Part shown: positions 33,084-49,137 of the stretch, piece after piece | How positions within the stretch are numbered: the stretch's first letter is position 1 | Layout: the number at the start of each line of letters is the position of its first letter | Origin: Bradyrhizobium sp. 1 | GTDB taxonomy: Bacteria; Pseudomonadota; Alphaproteobacteria; Rhizobiales; Xanthobacteraceae | Assembly: GCF_023073315.1 (NCBI RefSeq) | Contig: NZ_JADPJH010000014.1 | Coordinates: forward strand, 186,001-250,000 | Direction of reading: 5' to 3' | DNA length: 64,000 nt | Notes under the pieces: model-generated | Told to the model about the DNA's origin: nothing | The model's input: only the letters and a program-made list of their open reading frames with translations | The model's database searches: none | Position numbers and translations under genes: made by a program

Positions 33084-34208
33084 CTACCAGGTGTAGCGAA
33101 GGCCCGCTTGCGTACCCACGATCGAGGTTCCAGCGCCGCCGACCGCGGGAAGGCCCGTCTTCGGTGCGGTGATGCTGCTGCCATGTACCTCGAGGTAGGA
33201 CGACAACTGCGGTGTCCACAGCACGTTGATCTTGCCTGAGCCACGGACGCCGTACGTGCCGACCGTACCTCCGAAGGGAACGCCCCCGACGACAACCGCG
33301 CCGGCGGCGCCGCTTGCGTCGACGATCTCATAATACTGGCCCGAGATCGACGGCTGGACTGTGTAGCCCAACCACTTCGTCTCAAAGCCTGCGCGCGCAC
33401 CGCCGTGGACTTCCGTCGAGTCGCCGGTCTTGGTGCCGAAATTGCCCGTGTAGCTCTCCGAATAGGTCACGCCAGCCGTCGGCTCGATCCACACCGTGTA
33501 GGGGAAGTCGAAGCGGTACTGACCATTCAGAGTGTAGGCCAAGCCGCTGGCGTCGCCGGCCACGCCAACAACGGCCACGTTGGTGGTGTTGTGGGTCCAG
33601 CTTGCGAGGGTCGTGAAGTCAGCCGAGAAACCGCCGTTGATGTAGGACAGGGTGCCGGAGGTTGATGGAATGGAGCCATCAGTAATGGTCGCTGCGCCTC
33701 CGAGACTGGAGAAGCTGTGCGCCCATGAATGCGACCCCGTGCCGATGAAGGTCAACGCGTCGGTCGCGGTGAAGATGCCGATCTTGGTCACATCGACCGC
33801 GCCGGTCACCGTCGCAACGCTGACATCGACCCCGGTGGATTGCGCCCTGTCGCCGCTGCCGACCAGGTTCACGCCGTAGAGCCAGGCTGCCGGGGGCGGT
33901 GCCGCAAGCGGCGGAGCCTTGGCGTAGGCCAGTGCGCTGAACGGATTGCTTACACCCTTCGAAGCGAAGGGATCGCGGTTATCGAAGTTCGCCTCCTCGC
34001 CGCTGAAACGCAGCGTTCCCGGAGGGGCAATGACCCTGCGGTGCTGAATCTGGTCACGAACATTCTGGATGATGTTCTGGATGACATTGTTGATGACTTC
34101 CTGCGGAATATTGGGGCCCGACTGGGCCGCTGCAGGCCGGACCGCAAACAAAGAAAGAACAGCAAGCAAAGCAACGGCAAAGCCGTGACGGAAAAATCCT
34201 AGCTTCAT
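33084..34208 (-). CDS. Outer-membrane beta-barrel protein, autotransporter-domain type
   Basis: 374 residues: signal peptide (cleavage after VRPAAAQ), an unusual Gln/Asn/Ile-rich helix (QEVINNVIQNIIQNVRDQIQ), a short passenger-like part, and from about residue 110 a region of alternating strands (for example FPYTVWIEPTAGVTYSES and GLRYTW at the end). The C-terminal aromatic and strand pattern fit an autotransporter barrel. With so short a passenger it is more likely a porin-like or adhesin-like barrel than a classical secreted toxin. It is divergent from the LuxR-type regulator across 279 bp containing palindromes. Confidence 0.8.
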   Translation of the reverse strand: MKLGFFRHGFAVALLAVLSLFAVRPAAAQSGPNIPQEVINNVIQNIIQNVRDQIQHRRVIAPPGTLRFSGEEANFDNRDPFASKGVSNPFSALAYAKAPPLAAPPPAAWLYGVNLVGSGDRAQSTGVDVSVATVTGAVDVTKIGIFTATDALTFIGTGSHSWAHSFSSLGGAATITDGSIPSTSGTLSYINGGFSADFTTLASWTHNTTNVAVVGVAGDASGLAYTLNGQYRFDFPYTVWIEPTAGVTYSESYTGNFGTKTGDSTEVHGGARAGFETKWLGYTVQPSISGQYYEIVDASGAAGAVVVGGVPFGGTVGTYGVRGSGKINVLWTPQLSSYLEVHGSSITAPKTGLPAVGGAGTSIVGTQAGLRYTW

Positions 34209-35629: not shown

Positions 35630-35914
35630 CTAGTTTTGGGGCGATCGTAGTTCGCTATCGCCCGGTCCGAGCCTACTTCGCTTCTTCGCGGCACGACGAG
35701 TGATTGCTTGGTTGACCTCGGCTCTTTGAGAGCGCGCGGCCTCTTCGCGCATCGCCTTCTCCCGAATGTGCCGCCGCACGTCGTCCCGAACGCCCTGAAT
35801 GATGGACTCCCGCGACGCTTCGGCAGGGTCGTCGCAGCGGGCTGCGCCGGACAACGTCAAAAGCAGCCCGAAGGCCAGAACAAGCGTGCGAAGGGGCCGA
35901 GATAATTGCGTCAA
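35630..35914 (-). CDS. Small secreted highly charged protein, 94 aa
   Basis: No family recognised. A signal peptide (LRTLVLAFGLLLTLSGAARC) is followed by a helical, charged domain rich in Arg, Glu and Ala (ESIIQGVRDDVRRHIREK, then AMREEAARSQR). The TTG at 35914 is proposed as start because GGAGAAG lies about seven bases upstream; an upstream extension to 35977 has no site. It shares the short motif IIQ-x-VRD with the N-terminus of the nearby barrel protein. It is convergent with the regulator gene. Confidence 0.6.
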   Translation of the reverse strand: MTQLSRPLRTLVLAFGLLLTLSGAARCDDPAEASRESIIQGVRDDVRRHIREKAMREEAARSQRAEVNQAITRRAAKKRSRLGPGDSELRSPQN

Positions 35915-36146
35915 TTTGACTTCTCCGAAACATTTGGTCCGGCCGAGGCTACTCACGTCAACCCGGCCGCAGCGCAATTGGTTTCACTGCTTATGGCCCG
36001 CTCCTTCGTCAAAGCGAGACCGGCATTGGTTCACAGAACCGTCGTGGAAACGCCTTTGATGTCGTCACCCACCTCATATTGCGATAGAATGAGCCGTTGG
36101 GGTTGGCTCGTGCGCCGATTGGTATTTTTCGACTTCCGAGATCTTG

Positions 36147-38393
36147 ATGTTTGAAATTGGTCGTTTCGGAATCCGCGCCCGTGGAAAACGGCGTGACATT
36201 TCCCATTGCCTGAGCTTCGTGCGGCGCATTGCTCTCTTCGGGCTTGCGACCCTCTCGATCCCTGGCGCAGTGCACTCGCAGGCCGTGGCCGGAGAGAAGA
36301 TCGCGCTGGTGGTCGGCAACAACGACTACCGCAAGGCGCCGAAACTGATCAATCCGGCCAACGATGCGGCCGACATGGCCACGTCGCTGGGGCGGCTCGG
36401 ATACAACGTCAAACACCTCGCCGACCTCGACTACAACCACTTTCGCCAGGCCCTGATCGAGTTTGGCAACGCCGCAAAGACGGCTGACAAGGCTGTGATC
36501 TTCTTCGCGGGCCATGGCGTCGAGATCGACGGAAAGAATTGGCTGATTCCGGTGGACGCTCAGATCAAATCCGAGATCGATGTCTACGCCGAGGCGATCA
36601 ATCTGGAGACCCTGATCGATATTTCGGTGATACCGAAGGTCATTGGGCTCGTGGTGCTCGACGCCTGCCGCAACGACCCCTTCGAGACGACCAAGGTCGC
36701 AGCCGCCGGACGCGCGCTCTCTGCGCGATCCCCGCCGGCAAAGGGAGCGGCCGAGCCGGTCTCCCGCGCATCAGGCGCCCCGACGCTGGCCTCCGCCGGC
36801 GCGCGCGGACTCGCTCCCGTCGAGGTCAACGACAACGTGCTCGTTGCATTCGCGGCCGCCGCCGGCACGACCGCCAGCGACGGCTCAGGACGCAACAGCC
36901 CCTACTCCGGTTCGCTGTTGCGCCACGTCGAAACGCCTCAGCTCGAGATCAACTATCTCTTCCGGATCGTTCACGACGAAGTCTGGAAGGAGACCGGGAC
37001 CCAGGAACCCGCAATCTACGGGACCCTTCCAAAGGGAGACATCTATCTCAATGGCGATGCCGCCACCGCAACGAGCGATGGCGGGGCAGATGCCGAGCAG
37101 GTCGCCTGGGAGTTCGTCCGCTCGACCAACGAGATCGCAACGCTGCGCCGGTTCGCCGAACAGTTTCCGGCCGGTTCGCATACGGCCGAGATCAACGAGC
37201 GCATTGCGCAGCTGACGTCAGCCGAAGCAAACGCATGGACGATCGTCGAGCGGCAGAAATCGCTTGCGGCCTACCGTGCCTATCTGGACCTCTATCCGTA
37301 CGGCGAGCATGTGGAGAACGCCCGCGTCACCTTAGCCTCGCTCGACAAATCAGCCAGGCCTGGTCAGGCCGGTGGACCGATCGAGATGCCCGGCCCGCCG
37401 CCGCCGAGCTATCAACTCGCTTCAGCCGATACGACCACCAGCAACTCGGGGTCGGTCGAGAAAGCGTGGGATGTCCTGAAGGAGTCGCATGATCAGAGCG
37501 TGGTCGGCCGGTTTGCCGATCGCTATCCAAGCATGCGTCGCAATCGCCTGCCGCCGGGAAGCGACCTTACGCTGCGCCCCGTCAATTCCACCGAATTGAT
37601 GCTAAGCACCGCACAGGATGGCGACGTGAACTCCTGCTTCGACGGCGATGCCGGGGCTTGCGCCAGGTCCATCAAGAAATACCCGGACTACGTCCAGCTT
37701 CAGTTCCAGCTCTGCCGCTCCAAGGGCAATCCCAAGGGATGCATGCTCAATGCGGTGACCGAGGCGCGCAAGCGAGGCCTGTTGGTGTCGGCTTACACCC
37801 GCTCGGAACAGGAGAAGGTTCGCAATCGCGAATATCGGCGCGTGGTTGCCCGCGTGAACCAGAACGTCGGCAATGTGGTGAGCGGGGTGGTCAGCAATGT
37901 GGTCGGCAACGTGGTCAGCAATGCCGTTTCGACCGCGGTCAGCAACGCTGCAGCAACCGCGGCATCGAGCGCCGCCAGCCGGGCTGCTTCGCAGGCCGCC
38001 TCATCGGCGGCCAGCAGAGCCGCCTCCTCCGCGGCTTCAAACGCGGCCAGCAGGTCGGCATCGAGCGCAGCCTCGAGTGCGGCCAGCAGGGCAGCATCCG
38101 CGGCCGCTTCGAATGCCGTCAGCCGCATCCCGATCCCCTCCGATGTTCGCCTCAAGGAGGACATCACCGCACTGGGCCGGACCGGCAGCGGCCTTCGTCT
38201 CTATCGCTACAGATACAAGGGTGATGCAACGTACTATGTCGGCGTGATGGCGCAGGACGTGGCACAGCGCCTGCCTGCGGCGGTTTCGCCAGCACCGGAT
38301 GGATACCTGCAGGTCGACTACGGCCGGCTCGGTCTCGAATTCCTCACCTACCACGACTGGATCGCCCGACATTCCGCGTCAGAACTCAACTAA
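36147..38393 (+). CDS. Exported caspase-like (C14) protein fused to an S74-type self-cleaving chaperone domain
   Basis: A 748-residue multidomain protein. Residues 1-44 are a long signal peptide (hydrophobic RRIALFGLATLSIPGAVHS). Residues 50-300 are a caspase-like domain with the catalytic dyad in FFAGHGV (His123) and LDACRNDPF (Cys174). Residues about 320-455 contain three Trp-anchored helical repeats (W321, W364, W441). A four-cysteine segment lies near 497-545. Residues 575-660 are about 21 Ala/Ser/Val tetrapeptides. The C-terminus resembles peptidase S74, the intramolecular chaperone of phage tail spikes: SDVRLKEDI, then YRYRYKG and YVGVMAQDV. Ser665 and Lys670 have the S-x4-K spacing of the known autoproteolytic dyad. 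It is followed 15 bp later by a paralogue lacking both catalytic residues. Domain calls are by motif; the whole architecture is unusual to me. Confidence 0.88.
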   Translation: MFEIGRFGIRARGKRRDISHCLSFVRRIALFGLATLSIPGAVHSQAVAGEKIALVVGNNDYRKAPKLINPANDAADMATSLGRLGYNVKHLADLDYNHFRQALIEFGNAAKTADKAVIFFAGHGVEIDGKNWLIPVDAQIKSEIDVYAEAINLETLIDISVIPKVIGLVVLDACRNDPFETTKVAAAGRALSARSPPAKGAAEPVSRASGAPTLASAGARGLAPVEVNDNVLVAFAAAAGTTASDGSGRNSPYSGSLLRHVETPQLEINYLFRIVHDEVWKETGTQEPAIYGTLPKGDIYLNGDAATATSDGGADAEQVAWEFVRSTNEIATLRRFAEQFPAGSHTAEINERIAQLTSAEANAWTIVERQKSLAAYRAYLDLYPYGEHVENARVTLASLDKSARPGQAGGPIEMPGPPPPSYQLASADTTTSNSGSVEKAWDVLKESHDQSVVGRFADRYPSMRRNRLPPGSDLTLRPVNSTELMLSTAQDGDVNSCFDGDAGACARSIKKYPDYVQLQFQLCRSKGNPKGCMLNAVTEARKRGLLVSAYTRSEQEKVRNREYRRVVARVNQNVGNVVSGVVSNVVGNVVSNAVSTAVSNAAATAASSAASRAASQAASSAASRAASSAASNAASRSASSAASSAASRAASAAASNAVSRIPIPSDVRLKEDITALGRTGSGLRLYRYRYKGDATYYVGVMAQDVAQRLPAAVSPAPDGYLQVDYGRLGLEFLTYHDWIARHSASELN
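37869..38126 (+). repeat. 12-bp-period coding repeat (about 21 tetrapeptides)
   Basis: An in-frame repeat encoding units such as VVSN/VVGN at the start, changing to AASS, AASR, AASN and AASQ. The 12-bp unit is degenerate at the DNA level, so it is not a recent pure expansion. It forms the linker between the caspase part and the S74-like domain. Confidence 0.85.
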
Positions 38394-38408: not shown

Positions 38409-39914
38409 TTGCGCCTGCCGGGTCTGCTCATTGCCGTCGCCGCAATTCTCCTTGGAACGGATGCAAAGGCCGCCGGCGGCCGCGTCGCCCTTGTCGTCGG
38501 AAACTCCAACTACCTCAATGCGCCGCGGATCGTCTCGCCTGTCAACGATGCCGACGACATCGCGACCACCCTGGTCGGCCTCGGGTTCGACGTTGATCTG
38601 CGAAAAGATGCGACGGCCGAGGATCTGCGGACGGGGATCCGCGCGTTCACCGAAAAGTCCGCAGGGGCCGACATTTCGATTTTCTATTTTGCGGGGTACA
38701 GCGCAGCCGCCGGCGTCGGCGGCCATTTAATCCCGGTCGACGCGGGGCTCCCGGTACCATCATCCCGCCCCGATACGATTCCGTTGCCCATAGCGATCGC
38801 GGGAGCCGCCCGCGCCCGTCGGCTCGGGCTGGTGATCCTGGATGCCATGAGGGAAAATCCCTTCCCGGCCAAACCCGACGGCCGCAATGGCGGCGATCGC
38901 GTCGCCGCTCCCGCAGGCGCGCCGAGCCGCAACACGCTGGTGTTCTTTCCGACAGAGCCGGGCCGGACCGCGGAAGAAGGCGAAGGCCGCAACAGTGTGT
39001 TCGCTGCGGCGCTGCTGAAATATCTCCCTCAGGCCGATCTCGAGATCAACTTCGTGTTTCGCAACATCCGCGACGACGTGCGGGCGGCAACGCAGCAGAA
39101 GCAAACGCCATACATGTATGGCCAGCTCTCCAAGGACAGAATCTATCTCAATCCGGTCAAGCAGGCCGCCATCGTGCAGGCCGATCCCACGGTGGCGCGG
39201 CGCTGCGACAGCCTCGCCTCCGCGTTGGCGGACGCAAGGAAACACACTGCCGGCCAGGATGACGTGCGCGAGGCTACAAAGGCGGCGGAGGCGGCTGCGG
39301 CCTGCTCGGATGCAGTCAATCAGTCTCCCGGAGCCGATCAGTTGCACTACCAGCTCGGACGTTCGCTCTTCGCCGCGCGTGACTTCACCGGGGCCTTGGC
39401 GAGCTACAGGACGGCGTCCGAACTCGGCAACGCGCGCGCGATCTACGAACTAGGCTGGATGTACGACAGCGGCAATGGCGTCGAGAAAGACCCCGCGCGC
39501 GCGCGATTCTATTACGAGATGGCAGCCGAGAAGAAGATCGCCCCGGCGATCTTCAGTCTCGGCATGCAGCAAGAGCGTGGAATAGATGCGGCCGGCGATC
39601 CCGCAAAGGCCTATGCGCTCTACAAGCGCGCGGCCGATCTCGGCGATCCGGCCGCCATCAACAAGATGGGCGAGCTTGCCGAGAAAGGACTGGGGATCCC
39701 ACAGAACCTGAAACAGGCCCGCGCCTTTTACGAAAAGAGCGCAACCATGGGTGCGCTGGAGGCCATGGTCAATCTCGCCCGATGCAACGCCAACGGTATC
39801 GGCGGACGGCAAGACCTTGCCGCGGCAAGGCGACTCCTGGCCAAAGCGGCGGAGGCCGGAAGTGCGGACGCAAGGCGCATACTTGCCCATATCGGAGATG
39901 CCAGGCCAAAATAG
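38409..39914 (+). CDS. Exported pseudo-caspase with Sel1-like repeats
   Basis: 501 residues: signal peptide (LIAVAAILLGTDAKA), a caspase-like fold (about 24-260) and four Sel1-like repeats (about 315-495, such as GNARAIYELGWMYDSGNGVEKDPARA). Aligned with the upstream caspase, the His motif FFAGHG is FYFAGYS (Tyr97) and the Cys motif LDACRNDPF is LDAMRENPF (Met147), so it should not be a protease. Conserved framework motifs (ALVVGNSNY, PVNDADD, EINFVFRNIRDDV) remain. The TTG at 38409 begins 15 bp after the caspase stop, so both genes are probably co-transcribed. It may act as scaffold or regulator of the active partner. Confidence 0.87.
   Translation: MRLPGLLIAVAAILLGTDAKAAGGRVALVVGNSNYLNAPRIVSPVNDADDIATTLVGLGFDVDLRKDATAEDLRTGIRAFTEKSAGADISIFYFAGYSAAAGVGGHLIPVDAGLPVPSSRPDTIPLPIAIAGAARARRLGLVILDAMRENPFPAKPDGRNGGDRVAAPAGAPSRNTLVFFPTEPGRTAEEGEGRNSVFAAALLKYLPQADLEINFVFRNIRDDVRAATQQKQTPYMYGQLSKDRIYLNPVKQAAIVQADPTVARRCDSLASALADARKHTAGQDDVREATKAAEAAAACSDAVNQSPGADQLHYQLGRSLFAARDFTGALASYRTASELGNARAIYELGWMYDSGNGVEKDPARARFYYEMAAEKKIAPAIFSLGMQQERGIDAAGDPAKAYALYKRAADLGDPAAINKMGELAEKGLGIPQNLKQARAFYEKSATMGALEAMVNLARCNANGIGGRQDLAAARRLLAKAAEAGSADARRILAHIGDARPK

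Positions 39915-44944: not shown

Positions 44945-44952
<8 letters not shown>
43975..44952 (+). CDS. czcB: Metal-efflux membrane fusion protein (CzcB family)
   Basis: The periplasmic adaptor linking CzcA to CzcC, 325 residues. An N-terminal membrane anchor is followed by a Glu/His-rich stretch (TEHAEEKKPEKPNDHVEQDEH), the lipoyl half-motifs (APIAGTVIERQISLGEYAS) and beta-barrel domain. The charged stretch probably handles metal. The last codons overlap the czcA start by 8 bp. Confidence 0.93.
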
Positions 44953-48157
<3,205 letters not shown>

Positions 48158-48159
48158 GT

Positions 48160-49137
48160 TTGGGCAGCCACGACCACCACAGCCATGAGCATGCCGGCCA
48201 CAGGCATGATCATGGTCACGACCACAGCCATGCTCTTGGTCCTGGCCACGGGCATGTCCATACGCCGGCCAATTTCGGCAAGGCCTTTGCGATCGGCATT
48301 GCCCTCAACACCGCGCTGGTCGTGGCGGAAGCCGTCTACGGCTATCTCGGCAACTCCACCGCGCTGCTGGCAGATGCCGGCCATAATCTGTCCGACGTGC
48401 TCGGGCTGATCGTAGCCTGGTGCGCATCGATCGCGGCGAGGCGCGCGCCGAGCGGCCGCTTCACCTATGGACTGCGCGCCTCCACGATCCTGGCGGCGCT
48501 TGCGAATGCCGTGTTCCTGCTGGTCGCTACCGGCGCGATCGGCTGGGAGGCAATCCTGCGCCTGCGCGAACCGGAGCCGGTCGCCGGCGTGACCGTGATG
48601 GTGGTGGCCGGCATCGGCATCCTCATCAACGGTTTTACCGCCATGCTGTTCGCGAGCGGACGCAAGGACGACATCAACATCGAAGGCGCTTATCTGCACA
48701 TGGCCGCTGACGCTGCGGTCTCGCTTGGTGTCGCGGTCTCGGCGGCGCTGATCATCTGGACCGGCTGGCTCTGGCTCGATCCCGTCACCAGCCTCGTCAT
48801 CTGCGTCACCATCCTCTGGAGCACCACCAGCCTGCTGCGCGGCTCCATCGACATGTCGATGGCAGCCGCCCCCAAGGGCACCGATCTTGCCGCGATCAAG
48901 GCGTTTTTGCTCGCGCGTCCCGGTGTGAGCGCGATCCACGATCTCCACGTCTGGCCGATCTCGACCACCGAGACGGCGCTGACCTGCCATCTCGTGATCC
49001 CCGCAGGTGGCGGCGATGCTTTCCTGATGGAAACCGCGCAGCTGCTGAAGACGTCCTTCCGCATCGGCCACACTACGCTTCAGGTTGAGACCCATCCCGA
49101 CAATGGCTGCGCGCTGGCGCCGGATGATGTGGTGTGA
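48160..49137 (+). CDS. czcD: Cation diffusion facilitator (CzcD/ZitB-like)
   Basis: A zinc/cobalt exporter of the CDF family, 325 residues. The N-terminal 40 residues contain a His-rich metal-binding tail (HDHHSHEHAGHRHDHGHDHSH). Six helices follow, with the metal-site pairs HNLSD in helix 2 and HMAAD in helix 5, then a cytoplasmic C-terminal domain. The TTG start is supported by GGGGAG upstream, and the gene begins 2 bp after czcA. It likely feeds the periplasm for the CzcCBA pump. Confidence 0.93.
   Translation: MGSHDHHSHEHAGHRHDHGHDHSHALGPGHGHVHTPANFGKAFAIGIALNTALVVAEAVYGYLGNSTALLADAGHNLSDVLGLIVAWCASIAARRAPSGRFTYGLRASTILAALANAVFLLVATGAIGWEAILRLREPEPVAGVTVMVVAGIGILINGFTAMLFASGRKDDINIEGAYLHMAADAAVSLGVAVSAALIIWTGWLWLDPVTSLVICVTILWSTTSLLRGSIDMSMAAAPKGTDLAAIKAFLLARPGVSAIHDLHVWPISTTETALTCHLVIPAGGGDAFLMETAQLLKTSFRIGHTTLQVETHPDNGCALAPDDVV

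What the first reader, a model, noticed from the sequence alone, without database searches (positions are those of the whole stretch)
36147..38393. Exported caspase-like protease fused to a phage-tail-spike-type self-cleaving chaperone
Seen: a signal peptide, a caspase dyad (His123, Cys174), three helical repeats, an Ala/Ser tetrapeptide rod, and a C-terminal S74-like domain with S-D-x-R-L-K (Ser665/Lys670) and a GVMAQDV motif. Known: S74 domains trimerise phage tail spikes and then cut themselves off at the Ser. Inference: three caspase heads may be assembled on a rod, and the 84-residue C-terminal domain released after folding. I know of no described bacterial system with this arrangement.
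Basis: partly seen in the sequence, partly recalled or inferred. Interest (0 to 1): 0.87.

Follow-up and report, generated by a model that had tools for sequence, protein, structure and literature searches.

The report
Exported caspase with phage-derived end cap
Soil bacteria related to Bradyrhizobium carry an exported-looking caspase-type protease whose tail end is a short self-cutting domain known from phages, next to a dead sister caspase; the cut itself has not been tested.

Summary
Window 36147-38393 encodes 748 aa: signal-peptide-like start, caspase domain (C14, E 4.8e-34; His123/Cys174), helical repeats, a four-residue Val/Ala/Ser repeat, and a C-terminal S74 domain (E 4.3e-8; Ser665/Lys670). 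It is not a one-off: 16 distinct orthologous cassettes in Bradyrhizobium and relatives keep the layout and these residues. Each is followed by a Sel1-type sister caspase that has lost both catalytic residues, and each has the same outer-membrane-like gene nearby. The S74 part is under purifying selection.

This is a short S74: the chain ends 83 residues past Ser665, too soon for the four-heptad coiled coil that trimerises MyRF, and the phage relatives scanned are mainly virion/ejection or unnamed proteins rather than tail spikes. Three caspase heads on a rod is unproven; self-cleavage at Pro664-Ser665 is plausible but untested. The same short cap ends unrelated exported-looking proteins across Hyphomicrobiales (DUF3300, FecR, poly-Gly lipoproteins, peptidoglycan-binding proteins), so it looks like a recurrent envelope-protein cap. 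I found no such arrangement in the papers searched. New variant of known kinds.

The parts
36147..38393 (+). caspase with export-like start, tetrad rod and S74 cap, 748 aa
   Evidence: 16 distinct orthologous cassettes
36147..36290 (+). N-terminus with signal-peptide-like hydrophobic stretch (residues 1-48, end approximate)
   Evidence: hydropathy in orthologs; inference
36297..37034 (+). caspase domain (Peptidase_C14), residues 51-296; His123 codon 36513-36515, Cys174 codon 36666-36668
   Evidence: invariant residues
37083..37523 (+). three helix-pair repeats, residues 313-459
   Evidence: AF2 model, block pLDDT mostly 65-86, 46-59 at joints
37854..38135 (+). four-residue-repeat rod, residues 570-663 (V-S-N-V tetrads, then A-A-S-x tetrads)
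   Evidence: AF2 helix at pLDDT under 50
38139..38390 (+). short S74 domain, residues 665-748; Ser665 codon 38139-38141, Lys670 codon 38154-38156; predicted cut Pro664/Ser665
38409..39914 (+). sister caspase with both catalytic residues replaced (Tyr for His, Met for Cys) and Sel1 repeats
33084..34208 (-). divergent outer-membrane-like protein, signal-peptide-like start, N-terminal [VI]xN[VI] tetrads, ends ...AGLRYTW
   Evidence: beside 16 of 16 distinct cassettes; only a sub-threshold Autotransporter hit, E 0.038, none in NCBIfam
35630..35977 (-). small protein between them, matched beside some Bradyrhizobium cassettes only

Best explanation
This is a conserved exported orthocaspase / pseudocaspase pair. 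The active partner crosses the inner membrane, folds with its caspase head and helical repeats at the N-terminal end of a long four-residue-repeat rod, and is closed at the C-terminus by a short, phage-related S74 auto-processing domain. I think the S74 domain acts as an assembly cap: once the rod has packed (with copies of itself or with envelope partners), Ser665, activated by Lys670, cuts the Pro664-Ser665 bond and frees the 84-residue cap, leaving a rod-anchored protease in the envelope. The Sel1-type dead caspase made from the next gene is the likely regulatory or substrate-presenting partner. Shown: domain identities, residue conservation, gene pairing, purifying selection, one S74 branch for the caspases. 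Inferred: export, packing of the rod, the cut, the role of the partner. Trimerisation is left open.
For: C14 and S74 matches over curated cut-offs. The S74 profile finds solved S74 domains by sequence: MyRF E 4.9e-7, a long tail fibre subunit 1.7e-6, a neck appendage protein 1e-4. The predicted S74 fold (pLDDT 91.5) matches phage 'intramolecular chaperone auto-processing' models, TM 0.71-0.72, rmsd 1.1-1.2 A for the two best. Ser-Asp and Lys in 147 of 147 distinct short S74 domains tallied. dN/dS 0.19-0.38 in S74. Same layout in 16 distinct orthologs; rod length 3 modulo 4 in 13 of 14 rows measured. Dead sister caspase beside all 16. Self-cleavage at the SDxxxK serine was shown for a bacterial S74 protein of Bdellovibrio (PMC10769870, passages read).
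Against: No full coiled-coil helix after the S74 core, although in MyRF mutations that disrupt it affect trimers and cutting (PMC8326128, passages). In T5 and endosialidase residues of the upstream beta-helix (Arg; in T5 also an Asp) take part in the cut, and no such stalk is seen here. No cleavage, export or expression data. PDB fold comparison gave no significant match. Conserved Ser and Lys could be structural. S74 dN/dS is higher than that of the caspase head in 7 of 7 pairs. In Rhodoplanes a related caspase/sister pair exists without S74 (L090).
Confidence: 0.45

Rival explanations
1. Full tail-spike-like mechanism: the S74 domain trimerises the chain, templates a trimeric rod carrying three caspase heads, then cuts itself off.
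For: S74 family membership and intact dyad; MyRF shows that an S74 domain can trimerise a non-phage protein (PMC8326128, passages).
Against: No room for the coiled coil: 84 residues counting Ser, against 119 in MyRF to the end of helix alpha4 (S587 to K705) and 133 in T5 (PMC8326128, PMC4690869, passages); the model has one 12-residue helix at the end, so a short helical bundle is not excluded. Relatives carry the same cap behind poly-Gly or Pro-rich linkers.
Confidence: 0.2
2. The S74 domain is a retained, non-cutting C-terminal module (folded plug or ligand-binding head); Ser and Lys are kept for structure.
For: No full trimerising helix; an LG[LI]..W end is found in its place in 16 of 16 caspases and 26 of 27 DUF3300 proteins, suggesting a new surface; it follows flexible-looking linkers in relatives.
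Against: The two catalytic residues are invariant in 147 of 147, in phage and host copies alike; two very divergent membrane-anchored relatives (L272, L275) still have Ser and Lys by eye.
Confidence: 0.28
3. The caspase itself trims its own rod or cap after Arg residues, and the S74 domain only protects the end until then.
For: Orthocaspases cut after positively charged residues (PMC6426788, abstract); the rod carries several Arg.
Against: No cleavage data; Arg positions in the rod differ between orthologs.
Confidence: 0.06
4. Chance read-through, assembly error or pseudogene fusion.
For: The rod is a DNA tandem repeat.
Against: Same layout in 16 distinct orthologs from different assemblies, with low dN/dS in the 7 pairs computed.
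Confidence: 0.01

Closest known systems
Orthocaspases and pseudo-orthocaspases of Rhizobiales (PMC6426788: passages and section 13 read)
   Same: Caspase domain with His-Cys dyad; dead variants are common in Rhizobiales, where Tyr is a frequent replacement of His.
   Different: Section 13 names YS, YA, FS, QC and HA as the most common dyads, with TPR, trypsin-like or DUF4384 partners. Here the dead partner is Tyr-Met or Tyr-Leu with Sel1 repeats, and the active partner ends in rod plus S74; 'S74' and 'Sel1' have 0 occurrences in the main text. Its figures and supplements were not seen.
Bdellovibrio MAT fibres (PMC10769870: passages read)
   Same: Exported bacterial proteins ending in S74 with SDxxxK; self-cleavage at the Ser shown for Bd3182.
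   Different: Adhesive trimeric beta-helical fibres with no caspase described in the passages; Bd3182 has 141 residues from S782 to the construct end at 922, against 84 here.
MyRF ICA domain (PMC8326128: passages read)
   Same: Ser-Lys dyad five residues apart (S587/K592; here S665/K670), used on a non-phage protein; sequence match E 4.9e-7.
   Different: MyRF has a four-heptad trimer-forming C-terminal helix and a beta-helical stalk; not seen here.
[quoted passage not shown]
   Same: C-terminal S74 domain with the same dyad (T5 Ser1264, Lys1269).
   Different: 133-residue chaperone with long hairpins and coiled coil in T5; residues of the upstream beta-helix take part in the cut.
Short S74 of phage virion/ejection proteins (phrog_6121, phrog_4287, phrog_598)
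   Same: Same length class and fold; viral rows of A5 are 32-56% identical to the window's S74.
   Different: No caspase in the same frame in the 80 viral loci kept; only 1 of 78 tallied phage domains has the LG[LI]..W end.

Membership tests
Orthocaspase (C14) | C14 catalytic domain | tested here: met
   118.5 bits, cut-off 21.4
Orthocaspase (C14) | His-Cys dyad | tested here: met
   His123 and Cys174 invariant in 10 of 10 and 14 of 14 rows
Orthocaspase (C14) | no separate p10 domain | not tested
   Pfam C14 spans the whole match; p20 and p10 were not scored apart
Orthocaspase (C14) | cuts after Arg/Lys | not testable with these tools
   needs protein assay
Peptidase_S74 (Pfam domain) | profile match over curated cut-off | tested here: met
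   33.8 bits against 22; 9 of 10 distinct caspases scanned reach it, L085 has no S74 row at E<=0.001
Peptidase_S74 (Pfam domain) | SDxxxK Ser-Lys dyad | tested here: met
   16 of 16 caspases; 147 of 147 distinct short domains tallied
Peptidase_S74 (Pfam domain) | shared fold with phage S74 proteins | tested here: met
   23 viral models at E<=0.001; ranks 1, 2, 4, 5, 7 are named auto-processing chaperones
Peptidase_S74 (Pfam domain) | match to solved S74 structures by fold | tested here: inconclusive
   Foldseek: none at E<=0.001; VIA-align best row MyRF ICA, Z 3.4, rmsd 6.0, 60 aligned, tied with unrelated rows
Trimeric intramolecular chaperone (endosialidase/MyRF/T5 type) | full C-terminal coiled-coil helix | tested here: not met
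   chain ends 83 residues past Ser; model shows one 12-residue helix, residues 735-746, low confidence at its end; MyRF alpha4 is N670-K705, four heptads (PMC8326128)
Trimeric intramolecular chaperone (endosialidase/MyRF/T5 type) | upstream triple beta-helix | tested here: inconclusive
   rod modelled as helix at pLDDT under 50
Trimeric intramolecular chaperone (endosialidase/MyRF/T5 type) | self-cleavage and trimer | not testable with these tools
   no multimer prediction or bench work
Pseudo-orthocaspase (downstream gene) | C14 domain with dyad replaced | tested here: met
   C14 93 bits; His to Tyr and Cys to Met/Leu in 15 of 15 sisters of S74 caspases aligned and in L274 by reading

The most novel reading that the evidence does not exclude
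The short S74 domain is a general self-removing cap of the envelope in Hyphomicrobiales. It was captured from phage virion proteins, joined to at least five unrelated exported protein types, and couples assembly of repeat rods or linkers to release of the mature protein. In this cassette it builds a multi-headed exported caspase array that is controlled by a dead caspase partner and docked at the outer membrane through shared four-residue repeats.
Probability: 0.2. Interest if true: 0.85.

Novelty: new variant of a known kind. Interest (0 to 1): 0.6.

Why it matters
If the cut is real, a phage auto-processing domain has been turned into a maturation switch for an exported bacterial caspase, a protease class whose bacterial roles are mostly unknown (own knowledge). 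It would also give a reason why exported proteins of rhizobia and relatives end in a phage-type S74 domain, and would make those proteins easy to test: one point mutation, one gel. The fixed pairing of an active and a dead caspase offers a natural two-protein system in which to study pseudoenzyme control in bacteria.

Tried and rejected
Full-length AF2 with 14 orthologs: mean pLDDT 48, so no claim on the caspase head or rod fold. Foldseek against PDB with the S74 model: nothing at E<=0.001; VIA-align rows tied and weak. Defence-system library: no match for the caspase or its sister at E<=0.01. Promoter and terminator scan: 1 promoter-like and 6 terminator-like sites, within the range of the shuffles. 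Paper searches for the combination: 'Peptidase_S74' with caspase, 0 papers; 'Peptidase S74' with Bradyrhizobium, 0; broader searches listed no paper with this arrangement in title or abstract start (only top listings seen of 39, 76, 8643, 168, 153 and 1085 papers). Four papers were opened, passages or one section each. Only openly licensed PMC papers are held, so absence from print is not shown.

Considered and weakened: that the outer-membrane-like neighbour is an obligate partner. It sits beside 16 of 16 cassettes, but 6 of the 11 genus genomes that have it (98 searched, E<=1e-25) lack the caspase head at E<=1e-60, and no caspase match at E<=1e-4 was found in the stretches fetched around those 6 (L290 and L294 are cut by contig ends). 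The shared tetrad motif ([VI]xN[VIA] three times in register) was found in 13 of 5185 open frames: 9 caspase rods and 4 copies of this neighbour, no other. But only 9 of the 14 S74 caspases in that set show it under this strict pattern, the pattern was chosen after seeing both sequences, the frames come from loci picked around caspases, and orthologs are not independent. A looser form (two tetrads) persists in 3 of the 6 caspase-less copies. So it is a lead only.

The first two pattern scripts had wrong regular expressions and their negatives are void; one search replaced them. In one search two rows (L085, L088) were measured from the wrong start and were dropped from the rod-length statement; of the other 14, 13 are 3 modulo 4 and L056 is not. 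In one search the L034/L089 row was mis-anchored. In the tree every second viral row was dropped (148 rows to 109). The dyad tally rests on rows that match a profile starting at the Ser; I therefore looked at three family matches that began later: G051 has the full dyad, G535 is a long coiled-coil S74 reading S-S-A-R-Y-K, and in G001 the short profile found nothing. L272 and L275 (Ser-Glu) are also outside the tally. The poly-Gly lipoproteins were called by a lipobox seen by eye, and some rows of the tree were labelled prophage by resemblance only.
Full report
WHAT IS THERE. The gene at 36147-38393 (+) encodes 748 aa. Pfam gives Peptidase_C14 at residues 51-296 (E 4.8e-34) and Peptidase_S74 at 665-713 (E 4.3e-8), both over their curated cut-offs. 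The AF2 model of the full chain is poor overall (mean pLDDT 48.1; caspase head below 50) but shows helices through 313-402 and 434-459, with block pLDDT mostly 65-86, and further helices at 482-542. The rod is a four-residue repeat: V-[SG]-[NGT]-[VA] tetrads followed by A-A-S-x tetrads. Its A/V pattern peaks at a period of 3.98, and its length runs from 83 to 163 residues, 3 modulo 4 in 13 of the 14 rows measured correctly. Steps of four can come simply from slippage of the 12/24/72-nt DNA repeat, so they do not prove a structure.

IT IS A CONSERVED FAMILY. In 98 genomes of the genus, S74 is found at E <= 0.001 in 74, and the caspase head at E <= 1e-60 in 5; in those 5 the caspase frame carries the S74 domain. 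In 248 genomes of the family, 23 have a match to the caspase head at E <= 1e-40, 25 places in all. A two-strand scan of the 25 loci finds S74 in the same frame only in the six best by E-value, which are 67-100% identical. The seventh, G243 (72% over residues 118-302), lacks it and is frame-broken; the other 18 are 37-50% identical. The loci hold only about 1.5 kb beyond the match, so a distant S74 could be missed. A scan of genome contigs kept the best 80 of 212 relatives (79 loci); 13 of the 79 have caspase plus S74 in one frame: Bradyrhizobium yuanmingense (2), sacchari, betae, cajani, lablabi, jicamae, sp. S69, one Bradyrhizobium MAG, and four MAGs named Hyphomicrobiales (2), Xanthobacteraceae and Pseudomonadota. 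With the window, G062 (L033) and G189 (L056/L274) that makes 16 distinct cassettes, matching the 16 distinct caspase-borne S74 domains.

THE S74 PART IS SELECTED. dN/dS against the window copy is 0.19-0.38 for S74 in the 7 orthologs I computed (of 15), against 0.08-0.24 for the caspase head. It is thus constrained, though less than the head in 7 of 7. Ser-Asp at the start and Lys at position 6 are present in 126 of 126 distinct short domains and in 147 of 147 in the wider, overlapping tally. Two very divergent membrane-anchored relatives, read by eye and outside those tallies, have Ser-Glu but keep Ser and Lys (L272, L275).

WHAT KIND OF S74. A profile of 81 short domains finds MyRF (E 4.9e-7), a long tail fibre distal subunit (1.7e-6) and a neck appendage protein (1e-4) among solved structures, with Ser aligned in the last two and Lys in all three. 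The domain alone is predicted at pLDDT 91.5 and matches phage models, the two best being named 'intramolecular chaperone auto-processing domain' (TM 0.71 and 0.72, rmsd 1.1 and 1.2 A, 72 columns; 23 models at E <= 0.001). Against the PDB the fold comparison is inconclusive. Eight phage or prophage proteins scanned have as best PHROG a virion structural (5), DNA ejection (2, phrog_598) or DNA ejection protein family (1, phrog_4287). The window protein's best is phrog_6121 (E 2.6e-20), which may be helped by the low-complexity rod that the match includes; tail fibre phrog_5668 is second (1.2e-10) and phrog_4287 close behind. The two viral proteins of the most host-like kind, L157 and L164, are mostly phrog_358, of unknown function. 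The chain has 84 residues counting Ser665. In MyRF the trimer-forming helix alpha4 spans N670-K705, from 83 residues past Ser587, and mutations that disrupt it affect trimers and cutting (PMC8326128, passages). T5's chaperone has 133 residues and ends in the same kind of coiled coil (PMC4690869, passages). Loops of the short core are shorter too, so some 24 residues follow the V-D-Y motif here; they are modelled as one short helix (735-746). A four-heptad coiled coil does not fit, but a small helical bundle is not excluded. The host-encoded domains share an LG[LI]..W end: 16 of 16 caspases, 26 of 27 DUF3300 proteins, 2 of 2 FecR, 4 of 6 lipoproteins, 5 of 6 peptidoglycan-binding-type, 2 of 4 small proteins, 0 of 1 other; but 1 of 78 phage and 0 of 7 prophage-labelled domains (one search pattern, variants may be missed).

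A WIDER CLASS. The window's own genome has a second S74 protein over the cut-off, an exported-looking DUF3300 protein. Across 297 genomes of the order, 46 have the short domain at E <= 1e-6 (30 loci fetched of 58 matches). Read examples include FecR-domain proteins (L247, L248), lipoproteins with poly-Gly linkers (L249, L251, L253, L254, L257, L262; lipobox by eye) and proteins with a peptidoglycan-binding domain (L250, L255); phage-like frames are among the matches as well. A tree of 109 domains puts the caspase domains on one branch (support 92/83), DUF3300 on one (100/95), lipoproteins on one (89/90) and FecR on one (100/100). Host and phage domains are mostly separate, but the deepest split is weak (64/73) and few columns limit it.

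THE NEIGHBOURS. Directly downstream (TTG 38409) lies a Sel1-repeat caspase whose His is Tyr and whose Cys is Met or Leu in 15 of 15 S74 cassettes aligned and in L274 by reading. In Rhodoplanes piscinae (L090) the caspase lacks S74 and is frame-broken in that MAG, and the sister keeps His but has Ser for Cys: so the pair can exist without the cap. A divergent outer-membrane-like gene lies upstream in 15 of 16 cassettes and on the other side in one (L274). HU, PepT, MFS and LuxR neighbours are matched only beside part of the Bradyrhizobium cassettes (many loci are cut by flank or contig ends), so the cassette rather than the region looks conserved. I saw no prophage genes among the named neighbours, by eye only. 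The outer-membrane-like gene also occurs without the caspase (6 of 98 genus genomes).

MECHANISM. Best supported: an exported, rod-mounted orthocaspase with an auto-processing cap and a dead partner. The cut at Pro664-Ser665 is inferred from the dyad and from shown cases (Bdellovibrio Bd3182, blocked by S782A; MyRF, blocked by S587A and K592A; PMC10769870 and PMC8326128, passages). The lack of a full coiled coil argues that oligomerisation, if needed, comes from the rod or a partner, or that cutting works without a trimer, or that there is no cutting.

NOVELTY. The two main domains and the dead sister belong to known families. The combination, the active/dead pair with Tyr-Met/Leu dyads, and the recurrent cap on unrelated exported proteins were not found in the papers searched (mostly listings; and a text search of PMC6426788).

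Noticed in passing
L185, L197, L200, L206, L211, L213, L215, L216, L220, L224, L229, L231, L232, L236 (viral contigs): In 14 of 80 viral frames the short S74 lies inside a long open frame with 249-1326 residues after its start, as if it split a phage polyprotein.
   Followed up: no
L247, L248; L249, L251, L253, L254, L257, L262; L250, L255: Short S74 caps on FecR-domain proteins, poly-Gly lipoproteins and peptidoglycan-binding proteins in other Hyphomicrobiales.
   Followed up: partly
window 33084-34208 and 37854-37950: The mature N-terminus of the divergent outer-membrane-like protein and the start of the caspase rod share in-register [VI]xN[VIA] tetrads; 3 of 6 caspase-less copies of the neighbour have two of them too.
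   Followed up: partly
L090 (Rhodoplanes piscinae): Caspase/sister pair without S74; the caspase frame ends in Pro/Val-rich repeats and is frame-broken in this MAG; the sister has His-Ser.
   Followed up: partly
L157, L164 (viral contigs): Phage proteins of 1332 and 1339 aa with DUF4815 and a C-terminal S74 of the host-like kind, L164 with the W end.
   Followed up: partly
L272, L275: Small membrane-anchored-looking proteins with little besides a divergent S74 domain (Ser-Glu-x-x-Ile-Lys).
   Followed up: no
window 48176-48256: 21-24-nt tandem repeat just after the long open frame at 44945-48157 that looks like an RND efflux pump (by eye).
   Followed up: no
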